Shown: piece by piece, positions 6,203 to 32,256 of the stretch
How the letters are laid out: each line of letters starts with the position of its first letter
How positions within the stretch are numbered: the stretch's first letter is position 1
Source of the DNA: an uncultured Rhodospirillales bacterium
GTDB lineage: Bacteria; Pseudomonadota; Alphaproteobacteria; Acetobacterales; Acetobacteraceae
Direction: 5' to 3'
DNA length: 32,256 bases
Assembly: GCA_903881515.1 (NCBI GenBank)
Contig: CAIRTN010000341.1
Coordinates: 1 to 32,256, forward strand
Translations under genes and position numbers: made by a program
The notes under the pieces: generated by a model
What the model saw: only the letters and a program-made list of their open reading frames with translations
The model's database searches: none
Told to the model about the DNA's origin: nothing

Positions 6203-7722
6203 CAGGGGGCGATCGCCATGCCTTCCGGGCGCCACAGACCGTCGGGCCGGCCCTGGAAGCCCGCGAGTTTGGCCGAGGTGCCCCACAGCATCGACCAGTG
6301 GTACAGCACCACATCGGCCTGATCGGCGAAGAAGATCTCGGAGGCCTGCTTGTAGAGCGGCAGGCGTTCGGAGGGGGATTGGAGCGCGGTGGCCTGCAGG
6401 ATCAGATCGTCGTATTTCTGGTTGCAGTAATGGCCCCAGTTGACGAAGCCCTTGCAGCTCAGCCAGACCGGGGCGTTGCCATCGGGGTCGGCGCGGCCGG
6501 ACCACAGCAGCAGGCTGGCCTCGAAATCGCCGGACTGGGTGGCGGAGACCTGGGCGGCGGCGTCCATGGCGACGATTTTCATGTCGAAGCCGGCGTCCTT
6601 GACCATCGACTGGATGATCTGAGCGACCTGACCGTCCAGCGGGTCGGTGCCGGTGCGGAGCGTGAAGGCGACGCGGCTGACGCCGGCGGCGGCGAGGAGT
6701 TTCTTCGCGGCTTCGACGTCGCGTTCGGGCACCGGGTGGTTGGTGTCGAAATAATAGCTGCCGGGGGCTTCCATCTGGTTGGAGGGGACGTATTGGCCGT
6801 CGAAGGCGACCTGGTTCAGGGCGGCGCGGTCGATGGCCAGGGAGAAGGCCTGACGCACGCGGGGGTCGCGACCGAGCGGGGTGTCGGCGGCCTTGCCGTT
6901 GGCGACGTTGAATTCGATCGGCACGAAGCCGAGCGAGGGGCTTTTGGCGACGCGCAGCTTGGGGTTGGCGGCGACGGAGGCGACATCGGTCGGCGACAGG
7001 CGCTGAGCGATGTCGAGCGCGCCGGCGGCGAGGTCGACCTTGCGGATGTTGGAGTCGGTGATGGTGCGGAAGATCACGCCGGGCAGCTTGATCGCGGCGG
7101 CGTTCCAGTAGCCAGGGAAGCGCTCGAGGGTGATGTGATCCTGTGCCACCCGTTCCTTGTAGGCGAAGGGACCGGCGCAGACCGGGTGGGCGAAGATCTG
7201 TTCGCGGGGGAGGTCGAGCAGCTTCGGCGAATAGGGGGTGCCCGGGCGGTTGGCGAGCAGGGCGATCAGGGGCGCGTAAGGGCGGGTGAGCGTGATGCGC
7301 AGGGTTTGCGGATCGACGATCTCGGCTCCGGAGATCGCGGCCATTTCGGCTTTGCGGATGGAGTAGGCGGCGGTTTTGTAGCGCTGGATGTTGGCGGCCA
7401 TGGCGGCGGCGTCGAACGGGGTGCCGTCCTGGAAGACCACGCCCTGGCGCAGATGCAGCGTCAGCGACATGCGGTCGGCGGCCCATTCCCAGCTTGTGGC
7501 CAGTTCGGGGACGAATTTCAGGTCCGGTGTGACGTCGATCAGGCTGTCGCACATTATCGTGGTGACGACGCGGTTGGTGTAGCTGCCGTCTGTGGCAGGA
7601 TCGAGCGGGGCGGGGTCGAACTCGAGCGCGACGCGCAGGGGTTGGTCGGCGGCGTGCGCCGGGGCGGGTAAGGCGGGGAGTGCGGCAACGGCCCCGAGCA
7701 GCAGCCAACGGGAAAGCTTCAT
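6202..7722 (-). CDS. ABC transporter substrate-binding protein, family 5 (peptide/nickel/oligosaccharide type)
   Basis: This 506-residue protein has the length of DppA/OppA-type periplasmic receptors. A Sec signal peptide covers about residues 1-24, with cleavage after AHA. The mature protein shows the family landmarks: LIDVTPDLKFVPELATSWEW, the LRQGVVFQDGTPFDAAAM loop, and FSLAIDRAALNQVAF in the second half. The start at 7722 follows GGAGG by six bases; the longer frame would cost the signal peptide. It is an orphan: no permease or ATPase gene adjoins it, only the coupled PfkB kinase gene. That pairing suggests a sugar- or nucleoside-like ligand, but this is inference. It is divergent from a secreted GlcG-like gene (148 bp gap). 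Confidence 0.92.
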   Translation of the reverse strand: MKLSRWLLLGAVAALPALPAPAHAADQPLRVALEFDPAPLDPATDGSYTNRVVTTIMCDSLIDVTPDLKFVPELATSWEWAADRMSLTLHLRQGVVFQDGTPFDAAAMAANIQRYKTAAYSIRKAEMAAISGAEIVDPQTLRITLTRPYAPLIALLANRPGTPYSPKLLDLPREQIFAHPVCAGPFAYKERVAQDHITLERFPGYWNAAAIKLPGVIFRTITDSNIRKVDLAAGALDIAQRLSPTDVASVAANPKLRVAKSPSLGFVPIEFNVANGKAADTPLGRDPRVRQAFSLAIDRAALNQVAFDGQYVPSNQMEAPGSYYFDTNHPVPERDVEAAKKLLAAAGVSRVAFTLRTGTDPLDGQVAQIIQSMVKDAGFDMKIVAMDAAAQVSATQSGDFEASLLLWSGRADPDGNAPVWLSCKGFVNWGHYCNQKYDDLILQATALQSPSERLPLYKQASEIFFADQADVVLYHWSMLWGTSAKLAGFQGRPDGLWRPEGMAIAP

Positions 7723-23970: not shown

Positions 23971-24076
23971 TCCCAGGCGCAATCTGCCAGGTGGACGATA
24001 ATCCCGAAACGGGAGGCCGGTTGGCGGATGCACAAAATTCCGGCGGTTGACCGAAGGACGATTGGGGGGATTACCG

Positions 24077-25069
24077 ATGAAATTCTGGTCTCGGCGGACC
24101 GGCCTGTTAGGCGCGGCATGCGCGGCGGTCCTGACCATTGCTGGCGGGGTTCATGCGCAGCCAACGTACCCCTCGCAACCCATTCGTATCATTGTTGGCT
24201 ATGCCCCTGGCGGGAATACCGACATCCCCGCGCGATTGTTCTCCACCGTGATGGCAAAAAATCTCGGCGTTTCCATCGTGGTGGAGAACCGACCCGGTGC
24301 GAGCGGGGTGCCGGCGGCAGAGTTCGTGAAACGGGCGAAGCCCGATGGCTATACCCTGCTGTGGGCGACATCTGCGAGCCATAGCGTTTCAGTCGTTGCG
24401 ATGGCGCCGCTGCCGTACGATCCGGTGAAGGATTTCGCGCCGATCACCCTGATCAGTCAGGACCCGAACGTTTTGGTTTCCGGCCCGGACATCAAGGCGG
24501 AGGGGGTACAACAGATATTGGAGTATCTTAAGGCGCATCCCCGTTCGCCGGTCGGCAATTCCGGACCGGCGACATCGGGGCGGTTCGCGATGGAGCTGAT
24601 GAAGCCGAAGCTGGGGGTGGAAACGGTTCCGGTCCCTTACAAATCCACCGGGCCGCTGCTGACCGATCTGGCGGGCAATCAGATTCCGTTCGGGATCATG
24701 GGGGCATCGACCGCAGTGCCGTTCCTCAAAGATAAGCGGATCAAGGCATATTTCGTCACCAGCCTGACACGCTCGCGGATCTTACCGGATGTGCCGACGT
24801 TGAACGAGACGGTTTCGCCAGGGTTCGACGCAGTGGCGTGGAGTGCGCTTTATGCGCCGCCAGGGACGCCCGCTCCAGTGGTGGCGAAGATCAACGCGGC
24901 GATGCGCGAGGCGGCGCAAGCGCCGGAAGTTAAGCAGTGGCTGGAACAGTCAGGGCTGGAAGTGCCGTTGGGCACGCCGGAGCAATTGGTTGCATTCATG
25001 CAGACCGACATTGCGCGTTGGGTGTCTGTGGCGAAGGACAACAATCTCAAGTTCAATGCCGGCGAGTGA
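24077..25069 (+). CDS. tctC: Tripartite tricarboxylate transporter substrate-binding protein (Bug/TctC family)
   Basis: The 330-residue protein has a signal peptide of about 27 residues (VHA then QP). The Bug-family N terminus YPSQPIRIIVGYAPGGNTD (31-49) follows. VVENRPGASG, GYTLLWATSASHSV and the C-terminal VAWSALYAPPGTPAPVVAKI are further family marks. Such receptors bind a dicarboxylate or aromatic carboxylate in the periplasm and pass it to TctA-TctB. GGGGGGA before the ATG at 24077 supports the start over longer forms. It is the first gene of tctC-racemase-tctB-tctA and is preceded by a predicted IclR site. The ligand is unknown. Confidence 0.93.
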   Translation: MKFWSRRTGLLGAACAAVLTIAGGVHAQPTYPSQPIRIIVGYAPGGNTDIPARLFSTVMAKNLGVSIVVENRPGASGVPAAEFVKRAKPDGYTLLWATSASHSVSVVAMAPLPYDPVKDFAPITLISQDPNVLVSGPDIKAEGVQQILEYLKAHPRSPVGNSGPATSGRFAMELMKPKLGVETVPVPYKSTGPLLTDLAGNQIPFGIMGASTAVPFLKDKRIKAYFVTSLTRSRILPDVPTLNETVSPGFDAVAWSALYAPPGTPAPVVAKINAAMREAAQAPEVKQWLEQSGLEVPLGTPEQLVAFMQTDIARWVSVAKDNNLKFNAGE

Positions 25070-25919
25070 ACGACAGGCCGCCGGCCACTTGAGGATCTGG
25101 CACCAGAGTTTCACCACGCTGGCTGATGTGCCGGCCTACCGCGATGCGCTGCATGCGCGCATCGCGAAGGTCGTGCGACCGGGTACCGAGGTCGTTCTGC
25201 ATGGGCAGATTCCGGGAACGTATTCGACGAATTATCCCGGTGGAGACCTTGGGTTCAGCGCATTGTTTGCGCTGCACGGGTTGCAGTGGATCGCTGCGGC
25301 GCGGGAGGCGGAACGACAGGGTTTCGACGCGATGATCTGCGCGACGATGTCGAACCCGCTGATCGAGGAACTGCGCACGCTGGTGGATATCCCGGTGATT
25401 GGCTACGGCGAGACGGTGCTGACGCTGTCCCGGCTGTATGGGCGCCGGTTCGGCATGCTGTGCTTCATTGCCGGGCGTGCGGGGTTCTGGCCCGAGAAGC
25501 TGCGGGAATGGGGATTTGCTGACCGGTTCGTGGGTGTACGCGGCCTGGGTATAGGCTTTGATGCGGTCATCGGGGGACTGCAGGACGAGGCGGCACGCAC
25601 CGGTGTGGTTGCGGCGGTGCGCGAAGCAGGCGAGGCGCTGGTGCGCGAGACGGGGGCAGATGTGATTGTGCCGTCGGAAATGCCACTGAACCTGCTGCTG
25701 GCTTTGGCCGGGGTGCACGAGATCGGTGGCGCCACTGTGATGGATGGGCTGGCGAGCGTGCTGAAGATGGCCGAGATGCAGGCCGACCTGCGGCTTCTGT
25801 CGGGAATGCAGCCCAGCTGCAACGGGTTCTTCCATGCGCGGCCGCAGCGGGCACGCGTGGATGAGGTAATGCGATTCTACGGATTGGACGGCCTCGGTGG
25901 CCGGATCCAGGCGGATTGA
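25056..25919 (+). CDS. Asp/Glu/hydantoin racemase superfamily protein with a single active-site cysteine
   Basis: The 287-residue protein follows the hydantoin-racemase-like pattern. GFDAMICATMSNPLIEELRT (89-108) supplies the first catalytic cysteine, C95. DIPVIGYGETVLTLSRLYGRRFGML is the typical middle. The second site, normally a C-containing GADVIVLGC-type strand, reads GADVIVPSEMP (200-210), so the second cysteine is missing. One-cysteine relatives include arylmalonate decarboxylase, although there the other cysteine is the one kept. The enzyme may be an isomerase, decarboxylase or non-racemising relative. The ATG at 25056 overlaps the end of tctC by 14 bp. Its place between tctC and tctB suggests it acts on the imported acid. 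Confidence 0.8.
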   Translation: MPASERQAAGHLRIWHQSFTTLADVPAYRDALHARIAKVVRPGTEVVLHGQIPGTYSTNYPGGDLGFSALFALHGLQWIAAAREAERQGFDAMICATMSNPLIEELRTLVDIPVIGYGETVLTLSRLYGRRFGMLCFIAGRAGFWPEKLREWGFADRFVGVRGLGIGFDAVIGGLQDEAARTGVVAAVREAGEALVRETGADVIVPSEMPLNLLLALAGVHEIGGATVMDGLASVLKMAEMQADLRLLSGMQPSCNGFFHARPQRARVDEVMRFYGLDGLGGRIQAD

Positions 25920-25920
25920 A

Positions 25921-26370
25921 ATGCGGCAAGATCTGATTTCCGGGCTTGTGCTGTCGGCGATCGGTGCCGGGGCGGTGCTGGAGGGCCGGCGACATCATAT
26001 CGGCACGCTGCGCGAGATGCAGGCGGGGTATTTCCCGGTCGCACTCGGCACGTTGATGGTGATGATCGGGCTGCTGATGGCGGGCCTGGCGGTGCTGGGG
26101 CGCGACAGTGGCGAGGCGCATGTGGCGCATAAGCCGGATTGGCACGGAACTAGTGCCATCGTTGCGGGTGTAGTGTGCTTCATCGCGCTGGGGGCCTGGT
26201 TCGGCCTGGCGCCGGCGACGTTTTCCTGCGTGCTGATTTCGGCGCTGGGCGACCGGGCTGCGACCTGGCGTGGTGCGCTGGGGCTGGCGGTGGTGCTGAC
26301 GGTCGCCGCGGTTTTGGTGTTCGCCTATCTTCTGCAAGTGCCGTTTCCGATCTGGCAGTGGCCCGCATGA
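25921..26370 (+). CDS. tctB: Tripartite tricarboxylate transporter small permease subunit TctB
   Basis: The 149-residue protein has about four hydrophobic segments (near 8-26, 42-64, 84-104 and 120-142). The short GYFPVALGTLMVMIGLLM segment after the first helix is typical of TctB. It pairs with TctA in the inner membrane as the small subunit of the sodium- or proton-driven carboxylate importer. The ATG at 25921 is one base after the racemase TGA. Its stop overlaps the tctA start by ATGA. Confidence 0.88.
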   Translation: MRQDLISGLVLSAIGAGAVLEGRRHHIGTLREMQAGYFPVALGTLMVMIGLLMAGLAVLGRDSGEAHVAHKPDWHGTSAIVAGVVCFIALGAWFGLAPATFSCVLISALGDRAATWRGALGLAVVLTVAAVLVFAYLLQVPFPIWQWPA

Positions 26371-27881
26371 TCGGCACCGCGCTGACCGATCTTGGCCTGG
26401 GATTCGAGGTCGCATTTCAGCAGAACAATTTGCTGTTCTGTTTCCTGGGCGTGCTGTTCGGCAACATCGTTGGTGTGCTGCCAGGCATGGGGGTGATGGC
26501 GGCGATTTCGGTGCTGCTGCCGTTGACGTTTGCAATGAAGCCGGTTGCCGCGATCCTGATGCTGGCGGGGATTTATTACGGGGCGCAGTACGGTGGCGCG
26601 ATCTGTTCGATCCTGCTCAACCTTCCCTGTCACCCTCCGCACGCAGTGACCTGCCTGGACGGCTATCCGCTTACGCTGCAGGGCCGTGGCGCGAGCGCGC
26701 TGGGGATAACGATGCTGTCTTCGTTCGTGGGGGCATCGTTCGGCATTACCGAGATGATCTTTTTCGCGCCTGTGCTGGTGGAGGTGGCGTTCAAATTCGG
26801 GCCTGCGGATATCTGTTCGCTGATGCTGCTGGGATTGCTCGCGGGATCGACGTTGGCGAAAAGCGCGCCATTGAAGGGCGTGGGGATGACGGTGCTGGGC
26901 CTGCTGCTGGGGCTGGCGGGAACAGATGTGAATACCGGGGAAACGCGCTTCACCTTCGGTTTCGTCGAACTCACTGACGGGGTGGAGATTGTTGCTCTTG
27001 CGCTCGGGCTGTTCGGCATCGCCGAGTTCCTGAAGAGCGTGAACAATGTGCTGCCAATCTCCGCGACGGGAACGGTGGTACGCCTGCGCGACATGGTGCC
27101 GCGGCGCGATGAACTGCGCCGCGCGTTCCCGGCGATGATCCGTGGCACGTTGATTGGCAGCATGTGCGCGCTGATCCCCGGCACGGGGCCAACTATTGCA
27201 TCCTTCGTGGCCTATGCTGCGGAAAAGAAGATTTCACGTAATCCGGAGAAGTTCGGGCACGGTGCGATCGAGGGGGTGGCAGCACCGGAGGCCTCGACGC
27301 ACTCATCGGTGCAGGGCGATTTCATCCCGACGATGAGCCTGGGAATACCGGGCGATTCGGTGATGGCGCTGATCCTGGGGGCGCTGGTGATTCAGGGCAT
27401 CCAGCCGGGGCCGCAGTTGATCCGCGAGCATCCGGATCTGTTTTGGGGGCTGATCGCGAGCTTCTGGATCGGCAATGTGCTGCTGCTGATCCTCAATGTT
27501 CCGCTCATAGGGATCTGGGTGAAGCTGCTGAAAATTCCGTATCGGTTCCTGTACCCGAGCGCGCTGTTCTTCATCTGCATCGGCGTCTACAGCACAACCA
27601 ATGACCTCTTTACGGTCGGGGAGGCTCTGGCAATCGGGATCGGCGGGTATGGGTTACTGCAGCTCGGGTTTCACCCGGCACCAATTCTGCTGGGCTTCGT
27701 GTTGGGACCCCGGTTGGAAGAGAATTTTCGCCGCGCGATGCTGATATCGGGCGGCAAGCTTTCGGTGTTTGTCGAGCGTCCGATCAGCGCGACGTTCCTG
27801 GGTTTGGCCGCACTGCTGCTGATTGTCCAGGTGGTGCTGCGGATCAGGTTGGGGCGCACCGCCGGGCTGCAGGACGACTAG
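26367..27881 (+). CDS. tctA: Tripartite tricarboxylate transporter large permease subunit TctA
   Basis: The 504-residue polytopic protein has about twelve membrane segments. GNIVGVLPGMGVMAAISVLLPLTF begins at residue 32, and the second-half repeat GTLIGSMCALIPGTGPTIASFVAYAAEKK shows the duplicated TctA fold. MSLGIPGDSVMALILGAL is the conserved re-entrant region. The first-half counterpart normally reads N-x-PG near an aDGYP motif; here it is NLPCHPPHAVTCLDGYP (85-101), with Cys in place of Gly. That may tune substrate choice. The stop overlaps the convergent dppB-like stop by 4 bp (CTAG). Confidence 0.93.
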   Translation: MIGTALTDLGLGFEVAFQQNNLLFCFLGVLFGNIVGVLPGMGVMAAISVLLPLTFAMKPVAAILMLAGIYYGAQYGGAICSILLNLPCHPPHAVTCLDGYPLTLQGRGASALGITMLSSFVGASFGITEMIFFAPVLVEVAFKFGPADICSLMLLGLLAGSTLAKSAPLKGVGMTVLGLLLGLAGTDVNTGETRFTFGFVELTDGVEIVALALGLFGIAEFLKSVNNVLPISATGTVVRLRDMVPRRDELRRAFPAMIRGTLIGSMCALIPGTGPTIASFVAYAAEKKISRNPEKFGHGAIEGVAAPEASTHSSVQGDFIPTMSLGIPGDSVMALILGALVIQGIQPGPQLIREHPDLFWGLIASFWIGNVLLLILNVPLIGIWVKLLKIPYRFLYPSALFFICIGVYSTTNDLFTVGEALAIGIGGYGLLQLGFHPAPILLGFVLGPRLEENFRRAMLISGGKLSVFVERPISATFLGLAALLLIVQVVLRIRLGRTAGLQDD

Positions 27882-28825
27882 CCGTAGTCGATCCGGGGAT
27901 CGATATAGGCGTAGAGCACGTCGACCATCACATTCATCAGCACGTAGATCACCAGGATGAACATGATGCAGCCCTGGATCAGCGGGTAGTCACGGGCGTC
28001 GATCGCCTGGATCAGCAGGCGGCCGATGCCAGGGTAGGTGAACACTGCCTCGGTGACGACGGTGCCGCCGATGAAGCTCGCCGTCATCAGTCCGACGACG
28101 GTGACGAAGGGTAGTAGCGCATTGCGCATCACATGGCGGCCGATGACGTCGCGTTCCCGCAGGCCTTTGGAACGCGCGGTGCGGACATAATCGGCCTTGA
28201 GTTCACCGAGCAGAGCGGCACGCAGGAAACGTGCAAAGATGCCGGAGACGTAGATACCAAGAGTGAGCGCCGGCAACAGCGTGTTCACCACGGCGCCCCA
28301 GGGATCGAGCCAGACCGGTACGAACGCGGAGACCGAGGGCAGCCAGTTCAGCGTGACCGCGAACAGCAGGATCAGCAGGATGCCGAGCCAGAAGGTCGGC
28401 ACACCCAGGGCCAGCGCGCTCCAGCCTGACAACGCGCGGTCAAGCCAGCCGCGCGGCGAGAGCGCGCTGATGATGGCGACGGGGATGCCGAAAACCAGCC
28501 CCACAATGGTTGAACTCAGACCCAGTTGGATGGTGGCAGGAATGCGCTCGGCGATCAGCATGGCGACGGGTTCGCGGCTCTGGATCGACAGTCCTAGATC
28601 GCCGTGCAGGGCGGAGAGCAGCCAGAACCAGTATTGCTCGAGCACCGGTCGGTCGAGGCCGAGCCGGGCCACGGTCTCCCTAATCTGCTCGGGCGTGGCG
28701 TTCTCGCCGACCAAGGCACCGACCGGGCTGCCGGGAACGGCGAAAACCATCGCCCAGACGCCAAGCGAGGCGAGCAGCAGCACAGGTAGGAGTTGCAACA
28801 GGCGGCGCAGCACATAGCCGGTCAT
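27878..28825 (-). CDS. Peptide-type ABC transporter permease, DppB/OppB family
   Basis: The 315-residue inner-membrane protein starts with the DppB opening TGYVLRRLLQLLPVLLLASL. It has the periplasmic LGLDRPVLEQYWFWLLSALHGDLGLS loop. The EAA coupling loop is DYVRTARSKGLRERDVIGRH, followed by NALLPFVTVVGLM and FTYPGIGRLLIQAIDARDYPLIQG. About six membrane segments are visible. It forms the channel with the DppC-like protein. The start overlaps that gene's stop by ATGA. It is the last gene of the leftward transporter operon. Confidence 0.93.
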   Translation of the reverse strand: MTGYVLRRLLQLLPVLLLASLGVWAMVFAVPGSPVGALVGENATPEQIRETVARLGLDRPVLEQYWFWLLSALHGDLGLSIQSREPVAMLIAERIPATIQLGLSSTIVGLVFGIPVAIISALSPRGWLDRALSGWSALALGVPTFWLGILLILLFAVTLNWLPSVSAFVPVWLDPWGAVVNTLLPALTLGIYVSGIFARFLRAALLGELKADYVRTARSKGLRERDVIGRHVMRNALLPFVTVVGLMTASFIGGTVVTEAVFTYPGIGRLLIQAIDARDYPLIQGCIMFILVIYVLMNVMVDVLYAYIDPRIDYG

Positions 28826-29652
28826 GCGGCATCTCCGGCATGGTCGGCTCGGTCTTCAAGGATGCGGGCCAGCGTACGGCCGAGCGTGTCAAGCGAGAGG
28901 ATGGTCAGTGTCAGCACGAGACCGGGCAGCACCGCGTAAGTGGGGGCCTCGTAGAGGTAGGATTTGCCGGTGCGCAGCATTTCGCCCCAGCTTGGCGCAG
29001 GCGGGGGAATGCCGACGCCGAGGAAGGCCAGCGCCGCTTCGAGCAGGATGGCGACCGAGGAGAGGATGACAACCTGCACCAGGATCGGGCTCCAGGCATT
29101 GGGCAGCACGGTGCGAAACATGGCATAGCCCGCTGATCCGCCCATCGCCTCAACAGCGACGACGAAATCACGGCTGCGCAACGAGAGCACCTGGGCGCGG
29201 GTGATGCGGGCAAAGCTGGGGATGCCGGTGATGCCGACAGCGACCAGGGCCGCGCCCTGGCTACGGCCGAGCACGGCGATCAACGCCATGGCGAACAGGA
29301 TGTTGGGCAGGGCCAGCAGCACGTCGACAATGCGCATCAGCACGGCATCCCGCCATCCGCCGAAGAACCCGGCGACCAGGCCGATCGGCACGCCGATGGC
29401 GCCGGCGATCAGTACTGCGCCGCCGGCGGTGACCAGCGAGGTGCGGGCGCCGGCGATGACACGCGCCAGGATGTCGCGACCGAGTTCGTCCGCACCGAAC
29501 CAATGCTCGGCGTTGGGTGGGTCGAGAGCGGCGGCGAGGTCCTGCGCCAGAGGGTCGAGATCGAACAGCACCGGCGCGACGAACGACGCAAGCAGCAGCA
29601 CGGCAAGGAAGGTCACCCCGAGAAAGGCGCCTGGATAGCGCAGGGCGATCAT
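28822..29652 (-). CDS. Peptide-type ABC transporter permease, DppC/OppC family
   Basis: The 276-residue protein carries the DppC signature HWFGADELGRDILARVIAGARTSL (about 50-73), a central DVLLALPNILFAMALIAVLG and an EAA loop from DFVVAVEAMGGSAGYAMFR. PNAWSPILVQ and FLGVGIPPPAPSWGEML are also typical. About six membrane segments are visible. It heterodimerises with the DppB-like permease. Both ends overlap neighbours by ATGA, so all three genes are coupled. Confidence 0.93.
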   Translation of the reverse strand: MIALRYPGAFLGVTFLAVLLLASFVAPVLFDLDPLAQDLAAALDPPNAEHWFGADELGRDILARVIAGARTSLVTAGGAVLIAGAIGVPIGLVAGFFGGWRDAVLMRIVDVLLALPNILFAMALIAVLGRSQGAALVAVGITGIPSFARITRAQVLSLRSRDFVVAVEAMGGSAGYAMFRTVLPNAWSPILVQVVILSSVAILLEAALAFLGVGIPPPAPSWGEMLRTGKSYLYEAPTYAVLPGLVLTLTILSLDTLGRTLARILEDRADHAGDAA

Positions 29653-31670
29653 TCGGCGGCTCCGGGAAAGTGGCAGGCAACGCTTGAGGGCAGTCCCGGG
29701 TAGGACGCGAAGACAGGTGCCTCGGCGGCGCAGCGAGCGGTGGCGCGGAAGCAGCGGGGGTGGAAGGTGCAGCCGGTAGGCGGCCTTGCCGGGCTGGGTA
29801 TCTCGCCGCGCAGCACGATCCGGCGGCGAGCATTACGCAAGGCGGGGTCTGGCAGCGGGACGGCAGAGAGCAGTGACTGGGTGTAGGGATGGACTGGCGT
29901 CGCATAGAGCGCATCGCGCGTGCTCTCCTCCACGATGCGGCCAAGATACATGACCGCGACACGATCGCAGATGTGCCGCACCACCGAGAGGTCGTGCGCG
30001 ACGAATAGATAGGCGAGACCCAACTCGCGTTGCAGATCCTGCAGTAGATTGACGATCTGGGCCTGGATCGAGACATCCAGCGCCGCGACGGGTTCGTCGA
30101 GAATCAGCAGGCGGGGCTGCAAGGCGAGGGCGCGGGCGATGCCGATGCGCTGTTTCTGGCCGCCGGAGAACTGCCGAGGCAGGCGCCCCATCATCGCTGC
30201 TGATAGCCCCACTTTCTCGAACAAACCGCCAATATAGATGTCGCCGCCCATCTGGTCGTAGAGCCCGTGGATCCTCAGCGGCTCGGCGACGATCTCGCCG
30301 GCAGTGCGGATCGGGTTAAGCGAGGCGAACGGGTCTTGAAAGACGTATTGCATCTGCCGGCGAATGCGGCGGAGTTCGCTGCGCGGCAACCCGGTGATGT
30401 CCTCGCCATCGAAGCGGATGCGCCCGCCGCTTGCCGGCAGTAGGCCCATGATGGCGCGTCCGGTGGTGGTCTTGCCGCAGCCTGATTCGCCCACCAGACC
30501 GACGGTCTCGCCCGCGTGCACGGTAAGATTCACCCCATCCACCGCGCGGACCCATCCAATGCGCCGGCGCAGCAGGCGGCTGCGGATCGGAAAATGGACG
30601 CGGAGGTCCTCGATTTCCAGCAGCGGCGCCCCTCGCGCGCCACGAGCCTCGGAGGCAATGCGGGCGGGTAACGTCGCGGCTTCGGATTGCGGGAAGTGGC
30701 AGGCGACGGAGGCGCCCGGCGCGATGTCGCGCAGCACAGGTTCAGTCTGGCATTCAGGCCGTTCTCGGCCAATGGCGCAGCGGGGATGAAAGGCACAGCC
30801 GGAGGGCAGGCGGGAAGCGATGGGGGGCTGGCCGTCAATCGGCTGCAAACGCTCGGCGACGGTGTCGAGGCGCGGCAGGCTGCGCAGCAGGCCTGATGTG
30901 TAGGGGTGGCGCGGGGTGCGGAAGATCGCGTCGACCGTCCCAGTTTCGACGATCCGTCCGGCATACATTACCGCGACCCTGTCGGCGACTTCGGCGACGA
31001 CGCCGAGGTCATGCGTGATCAGGATCACCGCTGCCCCGGTCTCCGCCCGGCGCCGGGCAAGCACGGCAAGCACCTGGGCTTGGACGGTGACGTCAAGCGC
31101 GGTGGTGGGTTCGTCAGCGATGATCAGCTTTTTGTGTCCGGCCATCGCCATGGCGATCACCGCGCGTTGGCGCATGCCGCCGGAGAACTGGTGTGGGAAT
31201 TGGCCGATGCGGGCGGCTGGGTCGGGGATATCGACCTCGCGCAGCAGTGCTTCTGCCTGAGCGTCGGCGGCCTCGGCGCTGATCAGGCGGTGGGCGACCT
31301 GGCCCTCGGTCACTTGGCGGCCGATGGTCAGAACGGGATTAAGCGTCGTCGTCGGGTCCTGGAATATCATGCCAACATCGACGCCGCGCATGTGGCGCAG
31401 GTCCTCGGGATTGGCGGTGGTGATTTCCAGTCCCGCGAAGCGCACGCTGCCGCTTACGTTGGCCGAGGCATCGAGCAAGCCACTGATGGCAAGTGCGGTG
31501 ACGCTCTTGCCGGAGCCGGACTCGCCAACAATGCCCAGTACCTCGCCGGGAAATACGTCAAAATCGATACCGCGGACGACGCGCCCGGCGCCGAAGCTGA
31601 CGGCAAGGTCCCGCACCGACAAAACCGGTGCGTCCGGCGGCGCGGCGCCGCCGGACGATGTCGGACTCAT
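29649..31670 (-). CDS. Fused dual ABC ATPase (DppD-DppF type) of the peptide transporter
   Basis: The 673-residue protein contains two complete nucleotide-binding domains, like GsiA. Domain 1 has Walker A GESGSGKS (49-56), signature FSGGMRQR (162-169) and Walker B LIIADEP. Domain 2 has Walker A GESGCGKTT (394-402), signature FSGGQKQR (501-508) and Walker B LLILDEP. Each domain ends with the oligopeptide-transporter tail holding four cysteines (C292, C298, C307, C324, and C634, C640, C647, C666), a pattern linked to iron-sulfur clusters in some DppD/OppD proteins. The ATG at 31670 lies 4 bases after the stop of the truncated binding-protein gene; the longer frame would run back into it. Confidence 0.93.
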   Translation of the reverse strand: MSPTSSGGAAPPDAPVLSVRDLAVSFGAGRVVRGIDFDVFPGEVLGIVGESGSGKSVTALAISGLLDASANVSGSVRFAGLEITTANPEDLRHMRGVDVGMIFQDPTTTLNPVLTIGRQVTEGQVAHRLISAEAADAQAEALLREVDIPDPAARIGQFPHQFSGGMRQRAVIAMAMAGHKKLIIADEPTTALDVTVQAQVLAVLARRRAETGAAVILITHDLGVVAEVADRVAVMYAGRIVETGTVDAIFRTPRHPYTSGLLRSLPRLDTVAERLQPIDGQPPIASRLPSGCAFHPRCAIGRERPECQTEPVLRDIAPGASVACHFPQSEAATLPARIASEARGARGAPLLEIEDLRVHFPIRSRLLRRRIGWVRAVDGVNLTVHAGETVGLVGESGCGKTTTGRAIMGLLPASGGRIRFDGEDITGLPRSELRRIRRQMQYVFQDPFASLNPIRTAGEIVAEPLRIHGLYDQMGGDIYIGGLFEKVGLSAAMMGRLPRQFSGGQKQRIGIARALALQPRLLILDEPVAALDVSIQAQIVNLLQDLQRELGLAYLFVAHDLSVVRHICDRVAVMYLGRIVEESTRDALYATPVHPYTQSLLSAVPLPDPALRNARRRIVLRGEIPSPARPPTGCTFHPRCFRATARCAAEAPVFASYPGLPSSVACHFPGAAE

Positions 31671-31674
31671 CGGA

Positions 31675-32117
31675 TCAGGGCTTGAAGCCCACTGTCCGCA
31701 GCACCAGCAGATTGTCGATATCTGGCGTGAAGCCGGCGACATTCTTTGCTGCCACGATCAGGAACACATCGTAAGTATTGGTCGGAATTCCAAAAGAAGC
31801 TTCCACCAGCGCCTTGTTCAGCCCGTCATAAGCGGCCTTCACCGGAGCGCCAGACCCCAGCGTGGTGTTGACCTTCTCAATCGCGGCGACATAGCCCGGA
31901 TGCGGGTGCGGATCGCCCAGCACCGGGTTCTTTACGGTGCGATAGATGCTGTTGGTCGCCACACGGCTCGGGAATTTCTGCACATTGCCGACACCGCCGA
32001 ACACCGCAGCGAACTTGCCGCCCAGCAGGGCATCGACGAATTCGGTGCCGCCCTTCAGGTCCAGGTCGATCTTGATACCAACCTTGGTCAGCGTGCTCTG
32101 TACCACTTGGCTGATGC
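31675..32117 (-). pseudogene. Substrate-binding protein gene of the peptide ABC operon, cut by an IS66-type insertion
   Basis: Only the C-terminal 146 or so codons of a family-5 binding protein remain, from ISQVVQSTLTKVGIKIDL to the stop at 31677-31675. Reading upstream, the frame passes the junction at 32117/32118 and meets TAA in the incoming DNA. A signal peptide and the first two thirds are therefore missing from this side. KFPSRVATNSIYRT and GFTPDIDNLL resemble the end regions of DppA-like receptors. The remainder sits 4 bp before the fused ATPase, so it was the first gene of the transporter operon. The N-terminal part may survive beyond the element, outside the window. Confidence 0.8.
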
Positions 32118-32136
32118 GTAATTACCCACCCCCTTG

Positions 32137-32164
32137 CCATGGACTCCAATCTCTGAATCCATGG
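32137..32164 (+). repeat. Short inverted repeat just before the transposase start
   Basis: CCATGGA (32137-32143) and TCCATGG (32158-32164) are exact inverse arms around a 14-base loop, ending 3 bases before the transposase ATG. Such hairpins near element ends can block translation from outside transcripts, as in IS10; whether this one does is unknown. Confidence 0.4.
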
Positions 32165-32167
32165 GGC

Positions 32168-32256
32168 ATGGATCGCATTGATTTGCAGCGCCTGAGCCGG
32201 GAAGAACTGATCGAGCTTGTGCTCGCGCTTCAGGGTCCCGCTAAAACGTCGCGCAC
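32168..32256 (+). CDS. IS66-family transposase, N-terminal fragment
   Basis: The frame starts at the ATG 32168 and is open to the window end (29 codons). It reads MDRIDLQRLSREELIELVLA, then LQGPAKTSR. The LSREELIELVLALQ helix is the usual N terminus of IS66-type transposases, normally followed by an SSKPPS stretch that would lie just outside. The short length limits certainty. Confidence 0.65.
   Translation, partial: MDRIDLQRLSREELIELVLALQGPAKTSR

What the first reader, a model, noticed from the sequence alone, without database searches (positions are those of the whole stretch)
31675..32256. IS66-type insertion splits the receptor gene of an otherwise intact peptide transporter operon
The receptor frame runs cleanly to ISQVVQ and then breaks at 32117/32118, where the sequence switches to GTAATTACCC, fitting an IS66 end. 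A transposase start follows 50 bases later on the other strand. The fused ATPase and both permeases are intact and coupled by ATGA overlaps. The insertion should remove the receptor and separate the genes from their native promoter, suggesting recent inactivation or rewiring.
Basis: partly seen in the sequence, partly recalled or inferred. Interest (0 to 1): 0.55.

Follow-up and report, generated by a model that had tools for sequence, protein, structure and literature searches.

The report
Mobile element cutting a transporter gene
A common type of jumping DNA element, present in many copies in this bacterium, has cut the first gene of a nutrient-import operon, an ordinary gene-breaking event seen at the edge of an incomplete genome assembly.

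Summary
Window 31675-32117 (minus strand) encodes the last ~146 of ~510 residues of a family-5 solute-binding receptor. At 32118 it switches to the left end of an IS66-family element. That end sits beside 25 different flanks in this genome, and the matching right end beside 33. Eight of the 25 left junctions have a right junction with a shared 8-9 bp repeat (7 of 8 bp, 1 of 9; control 0 of 1656), so this element makes the expected target duplication here. In 11 of 11 related loci the receptor aligns near full length and the ATPase follows it.

The window is a whole contig of a 477-contig draft. It ends inside the repeat because assembly stopped there. The far side is not in the assembly: no right junction with GCTGATGC and no receptor N terminus. 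Since 17 of 25 left junctions lack a partner, this absence cannot separate a simple insertion from insertion plus adjacent deletion. Near-identical copies and an undecayed fragment favour a recent event. Rewiring has no positive support. The substrate (peptide or other) is unresolved. Ordinary IS disruption; low interest.

The parts
31675..32117 (-). C-terminal fragment (about 146 residues plus stop) of a family-5 ABC solute-binding receptor
   Evidence: 67-74% identity to receptors of 510-534 aa in 3 relatives; those receptors are SBP_bac_5, PF00496. The fragment itself matches no Pfam or NCBIfam model.
32110..32117 (.). GCTGATGC, candidate 8-bp target duplication (left copy only)
   Evidence: Adjoins the element; 7 other insertions in this genome show exact 8-bp and 1 a 9-bp duplication. 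The right copy was not found.
32118..32256 (+). Left 139 bases of a high-copy IS66-family element; the contig ends inside it
   Evidence: Same sequence at 25 left junctions with different flanks
32118..32133 (+). 16-bp terminal inverted repeat GTAATTACCCACCCCC
   Evidence: Shared by left and right ends; occurs once in the window
32168..32256 (+). Start of the single-ORF IS66-family transposase, cut by the contig end
   Evidence: ATG position; 78-79% DNA identity over the same stretch to complete relatives whose product is an IS66 transposase
29649..31670 (-). Fused (two-domain) ABC importer ATPase, intact
   Evidence: Two ABC_tran and two oligo_HPY stretches; 64-70% identity to the 3 relatives over most of its length
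28822..29652 (-). Permease 1, intact; ATGA overlap with the ATPase
   Evidence: BPD_transp_1; 82-86% identity to the relatives over residues ~47-270
27878..28825 (-). Permease 2, intact; ATGA overlap with permease 1
   Evidence: BPD_transp_1 and BPD_transp_1_N; 74-78% identity to the relatives

Best explanation
A copy of a multicopy, single-ORF (ISBst12-like) IS66-family insertion sequence has transposed into the receptor gene, the first gene of a receptor-ATPase-permease-permease ABC importer operon, after the codon region for about residue 363 of ~510. Shown: the junction, the element's identity by its ends and its relatives, its many copies, its 8-9 bp duplications elsewhere in this genome, and the full-length receptor in related operons. 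Inferred: that the missing half lay (or still lies) beyond the far end of the element, that the importer is not functional without a receptor of its own, and that transcription from in front of the operon is interrupted. The contig stops inside the element because a short-read-type assembly could not pass the repeat.
For: Exact shared left end at 25 junctions and right end at 33; 8 of 25 left junctions pair by an 8-9 bp direct repeat, wrong-orientation control 0 of 1656; complete relative of 1384 bp with the same 16-bp ends, one 425-aa transposase and a 9-bp duplication in Acidiphilium multivorum plasmid NZ_CP041717.1 (PF03050 and NF033517); receptor near full length in 11 of 11 related loci with the ATPase next to it; the whole window is one contig and 15 of 25 left junctions stop 138-140 bases into the element; receptor fragment is stop-free with changes mostly at third codon positions, like its neighbours.
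Against: No right junction with GCTGATGC: the only place within 2 mismatches, on C310, belongs to the insertion on C25. No receptor N terminus in the draft: with a 510-aa relative only the C341 match exceeds 37% identity among 104 matches; with the N-terminal part of another relative the best of 79 matches is 35%. The element's interior is not in the draft: PF03050 finds only a different IS66 element on C289. One chromosomal relative of the element has no clear duplication and an imperfect right end.
Confidence: 0.78

Rival explanations
1. IS-mediated deletion or recombination between two IS copies: the element now borders unrelated DNA at its right end and the receptor's 5' part has been lost from the genome.
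For: No N-terminal half in a 90.43%-complete draft; no matching right duplication; 17 of 25 left junctions have no partner, and the many near-identical copies offer substrates for recombination.
Against: The unpaired state is the rule here, as expected if flanks between close repeats were not assembled or binned; a ~1.1-kb missing piece lies well within the missing tenth of the genome; simple insertions with duplications are demonstrated at 8 sites.
Confidence: 0.18
2. Assembly artefact: the contig end was joined wrongly to the repeat and the receptor is intact in the cell.
For: The junction is within 139 bases of a contig end in a draft with 477 contigs, and the rest of the receptor is not seen.
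Against: The switch falls exactly on the first base of the element, as at the other 24 left junctions; 8 such junctions are validated by duplications; no other copy of this receptor locus, interrupted or not, is in the draft.
Confidence: 0.03
3. Adaptive rewiring: the element supplies a promoter for the ATPase and permeases, which now work with another receptor of the genome.
For: Matches to family-5 receptors lie on very many contigs of this genome, so a partner is conceivable; ATPase and permeases have intact frames.
Against: No sigma-70-like promoter in 31650-32256 on either strand (consensus scan, mean 0.2 expected by chance, so weak); the transposase points away from the operon; no receptor with more than 37% identity to the ortholog is elsewhere in the draft.
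Confidence: 0.04

Closest known systems
ISBst12 group of the IS66 family (e.g. ISDge4 of Deinococcus geothermalis, PMC12898284, passages seen)
   Same: GTAA-type terminal repeats, one transposase ORF, 8-bp direct repeat, gene disruption by insertion
   Different: Different terminal sequence beyond GTAA/GTGA and a perfect 16-bp repeat here; whole element not assembled in this genome
IS66-family element on Acidiphilium multivorum plasmid NZ_CP041717.1 (147308-148691)
   Same: Same 16-bp ends, 78.7% identity over the 139 bases held, single 425-aa transposase
   Different: 9-bp rather than predicted 8-bp duplication; different site
Dpp/Opp/Nik/Gsi-type ABC importer operons with a family-5 binding protein
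   Same: Receptor, fused ATPase, two permeases
   Different: Receptor truncated by the element; substrate class not resolved

Membership tests
IS66 family, ISBst12-like (single ORF) | IS66-type DDE transposase | tested here: inconclusive
   Only the first 29 residues are in the window; complete relatives with the same ends match PF03050, zf-IS66, and the Acidiphilium one NF033517 above its cut-off. The interior of this genome's element is not assembled.
IS66 family, ISBst12-like (single ORF) | Terminal inverted repeats beginning GTAA | tested here: met
   16-bp repeat at both ends
IS66 family, ISBst12-like (single ORF) | 8-bp target duplication | tested here: met
   Met for the element at 7 sites (8 bp) and 1 site (9 bp) of 25 left junctions; not met or not visible at this site
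IS66 family, ISBst12-like (single ORF) | One transposase ORF, no tnpA/tnpB | tested here: inconclusive
   Transposase ATG 50 bases inside the left end leaves no room for tnpA/tnpB before it; relatives of 1384 bp have one ORF; own full element not held
ABC importer with family-5 solute-binding protein | Receptor, two permeases, ATPase encoded together | tested here: met
   Gene order as in 3 relatives and 8 named loci (L109, L106 and L111 end before the last permease is complete)
ABC importer with family-5 solute-binding protein | Full-length receptor with signal peptide | tested here: not met
   Only about the last 146 of ~510 residues; no N terminus in the draft
Peptide transporter (Dpp/Opp) proper | Curated equivalog match | tested here: inconclusive
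   ATPase passes OppF and dipeptide cut-offs but also nickel NikD/NikE and opine CntD/CntF; permeases and the related receptor pass none

The most novel reading that the evidence does not exclude
The element uncouples the receptor from the importer and the ATPase and permeases are kept and re-used with another of the genome's many family-5 receptors, under a promoter brought by the element.
Probability: 0.04. Interest if true: 0.4.

Novelty: new member of a known kind. Interest (0 to 1): 0.1.

Why it matters
Mostly as annotation: the contig end is a repeat break, the receptor is a pseudogene fragment, and the operon should not be counted as a working importer without further evidence. The genome has at least 33 right ends of one almost uniform element, so it is a case of recent IS expansion, and many of its other contig ends are explained by the same repeat.

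Tried and rejected
Pairing the window junction with a right junction: no partner within 2 mismatches other than C310, which pairs with C25. Looking for the receptor N terminus in the draft with two different relatives and on 72 loci, which include duplicates of the same junctions (two weak hits of 27-31% on L004): only distant paralogues. Looking for the element's interior with PF03050: one hit, a different three-gene IS66-type element on C289. Outward promoter at the element end: none found, weak test. Same-genus genome G001: no receptor match and no match to the element's end (2 of 11 candidates scored). Papers: two searches with four and five terms gave 0 papers; one gave 2, of which I saw passages of PMC12898284; a search on contig breaks gave listings only and nothing is cited from it.

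I then held the text against the calls; I worded the related receptors as 'near full length' alignments (the 8 named loci were measured by tblastn, not by open frames), and added the missing negative results.

Full report
What the window end is. The window is a complete contig (G000:C341, 32256 bases) of a draft with 477 contigs, 4,940,675 bases, 90.43% complete. The right edge is therefore not a cut made by the scan but the place where assembly stopped.

Operon. On the minus strand lie a receptor fragment (31675-32117), a fused ATPase (29649-31670), and two permeases (28822-29652, 27878-28825). ATPase/permease and permease/permease overlap by ATGA; receptor stop and ATPase start are 4 bases apart. 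Pfam finds two ABC_tran and two oligo_HPY stretches in the ATPase and BPD_transp_1 in both permeases; the receptor fragment alone matches no Pfam or NCBIfam family. It was identified through relatives: 3 of the 59 other genomes searched have a match, at 74, 71 and 67% identity, in receptors of 510, 534 and 515 residues, each followed by the same ATPase and permeases and each matching SBP_bac_5. Eight further named loci from genome contigs (Rhodospirillales, Rhodoferax, Comamonadaceae and others, several of them metagenome bins) have the receptor aligned to between 490 and 511 residues' length of the 510-residue relative and the ATPase next to it; loci L109, L111 and L106 end before the last permease is complete. 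The window keeps about the last 146 residues, so about 363 are missing. Substrate: the ATPase passes NCBIfam cut-offs for oligopeptide and dipeptide but also nickel and opine systems; the permeases and the related receptor pass none. 'Peptide transporter' is thus a family-level guess.

Element. The switch at 32118 is the first base of GTAATTACCCACCCCC. A pattern search with one mismatch allowed lists 58 such ends in the genome, 57 exact. Reading the bases behind the repeat sorts them into 25 left ends (TTGCC...) and 33 right ends (ATTTTG...), each with its own flank. The right end was first recognised in contig C27, where one copy is nested in another, and encodes a C terminus like that of a relative (81.7% over 60 bases). 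Apart from the nested copy, 1 of 25 left ends and 4 of 33 right ends differ from the reference, by one base each over the lengths held. 15 of 25 left junctions stop after 138-140 bases of the element, which is what assembly stopping at a repeat gives (inference). The element's interior is not in the draft: PF03050 finds only a different element on C289. A complete relative on Acidiphilium multivorum plasmid NZ_CP041717.1 is 1384 bp long (L123:2501-3884), has the same 16-bp ends, a single 425-residue transposase (PF03050, zf-IS66, NF033517) and a 9-bp duplication. This is the layout of the ISBst12 group of the IS66 family, as described for ISDge4 (one ORF, GTAA/GTGA-type ends, 8-bp direct repeat) in PMC12898284, of which I saw passages. 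A second relative, in G176, has one transposase but an imperfect right end and no clear duplication.

Duplications. Among 825 left-right combinations, 8 share a direct repeat of 6 bp or more at the element's ends: seven of exactly 8 bp and one of 9 bp. In 1656 left-left and right-right combinations, where none is expected, there are 0.

The far side. It is not in the draft. The pattern of GCTGATGC next to a right end, with up to two mismatches, occurs only on C310, which pairs exactly with C25. A 510-residue relative's receptor finds 104 matches in the genome; the window's fragment has 73% identity and no other match exceeds 37%. The N-terminal part of a second relative finds 79 matches, at most 35%. 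Orthologous receptors are about 64-84% identical to the same relative, so a true N-terminal half should have stood out. I do not follow it that far: 17 of 25 left junctions have no partner, so missing far sides are the rule in this draft. Simple insertion remains more likely by parsimony and by the 8 demonstrated simple insertions, but is not shown here.

Age and effect. The fragment has no stop codons, is as similar to orthologues as the neighbouring permeases (78% against L105; ATPase 72%, permeases 78%) and differs mainly at third codon positions (0.48 against 0.15 and 0.11 at positions 1 and 2). Together with the near-uniform copies this favours a recent event. A different genus of the same family, G179, has the element's left end at 100% over 139 bases, which suggests recent spread between genera, or contamination of a draft. 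Effect: the receptor lacks its signal peptide and its N-terminal three-quarters or so (363 of ~510 residues, about 71%), so it should not work; importers of this class need a binding protein (established knowledge). Whether the ATPase and permeases are still transcribed is unknown; a sigma-70-type scan of 31650-32256 found none on either strand, with 0.2 expected by chance, and only 139 bases of the element were there to scan.

Verdict. A true and well-read junction; an ordinary IS66-family disruption at an assembly break. The insertion is accepted, the 'split with the other half beyond' is likely but unproven, the rewiring is unsupported.

Noticed in passing
L016 (G000:C27:4905-6648), junctions at C27:6408 and C27:6524: One copy of the element is inserted in another copy, 116 bases from its left end and in opposite orientation.
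   Followed up: partly
L015 (G000:C39) and L051 (G000:C287): The left flank on C39 and the right flank on C287 share 32 bases (GATTTTTTTTGAGAGGTATTTGTTTCTGTAAG) next to the element, far longer than its usual 8-9 bp duplication; two nearby insertions or an unusual event.
   Followed up: no
L026 (G000:C289:1-3353): A different IS66-type element with what look like three genes (tnpA/tnpB/545-aa tnpC) lies beside a frame that looks like ribosomal protein L17 (name recalled, not searched).
   Followed up: no
L104 / G179:C99 and C87: The element's left end is 100% identical over 139 bases in a genome of another genus of the family.
   Followed up: no
G000, many contigs, also window 6517-7698: The genome has very many family-5 binding-protein matches (104 match stretches with one query), a marked expansion.
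   Followed up: no
window 24047-27881: A tripartite tricarboxylate transporter set (TctC and TctA by Pfam) lies next to the ABC operon, with an IclR-type regulator and a luciferase-like monooxygenase further left.
   Followed up: no
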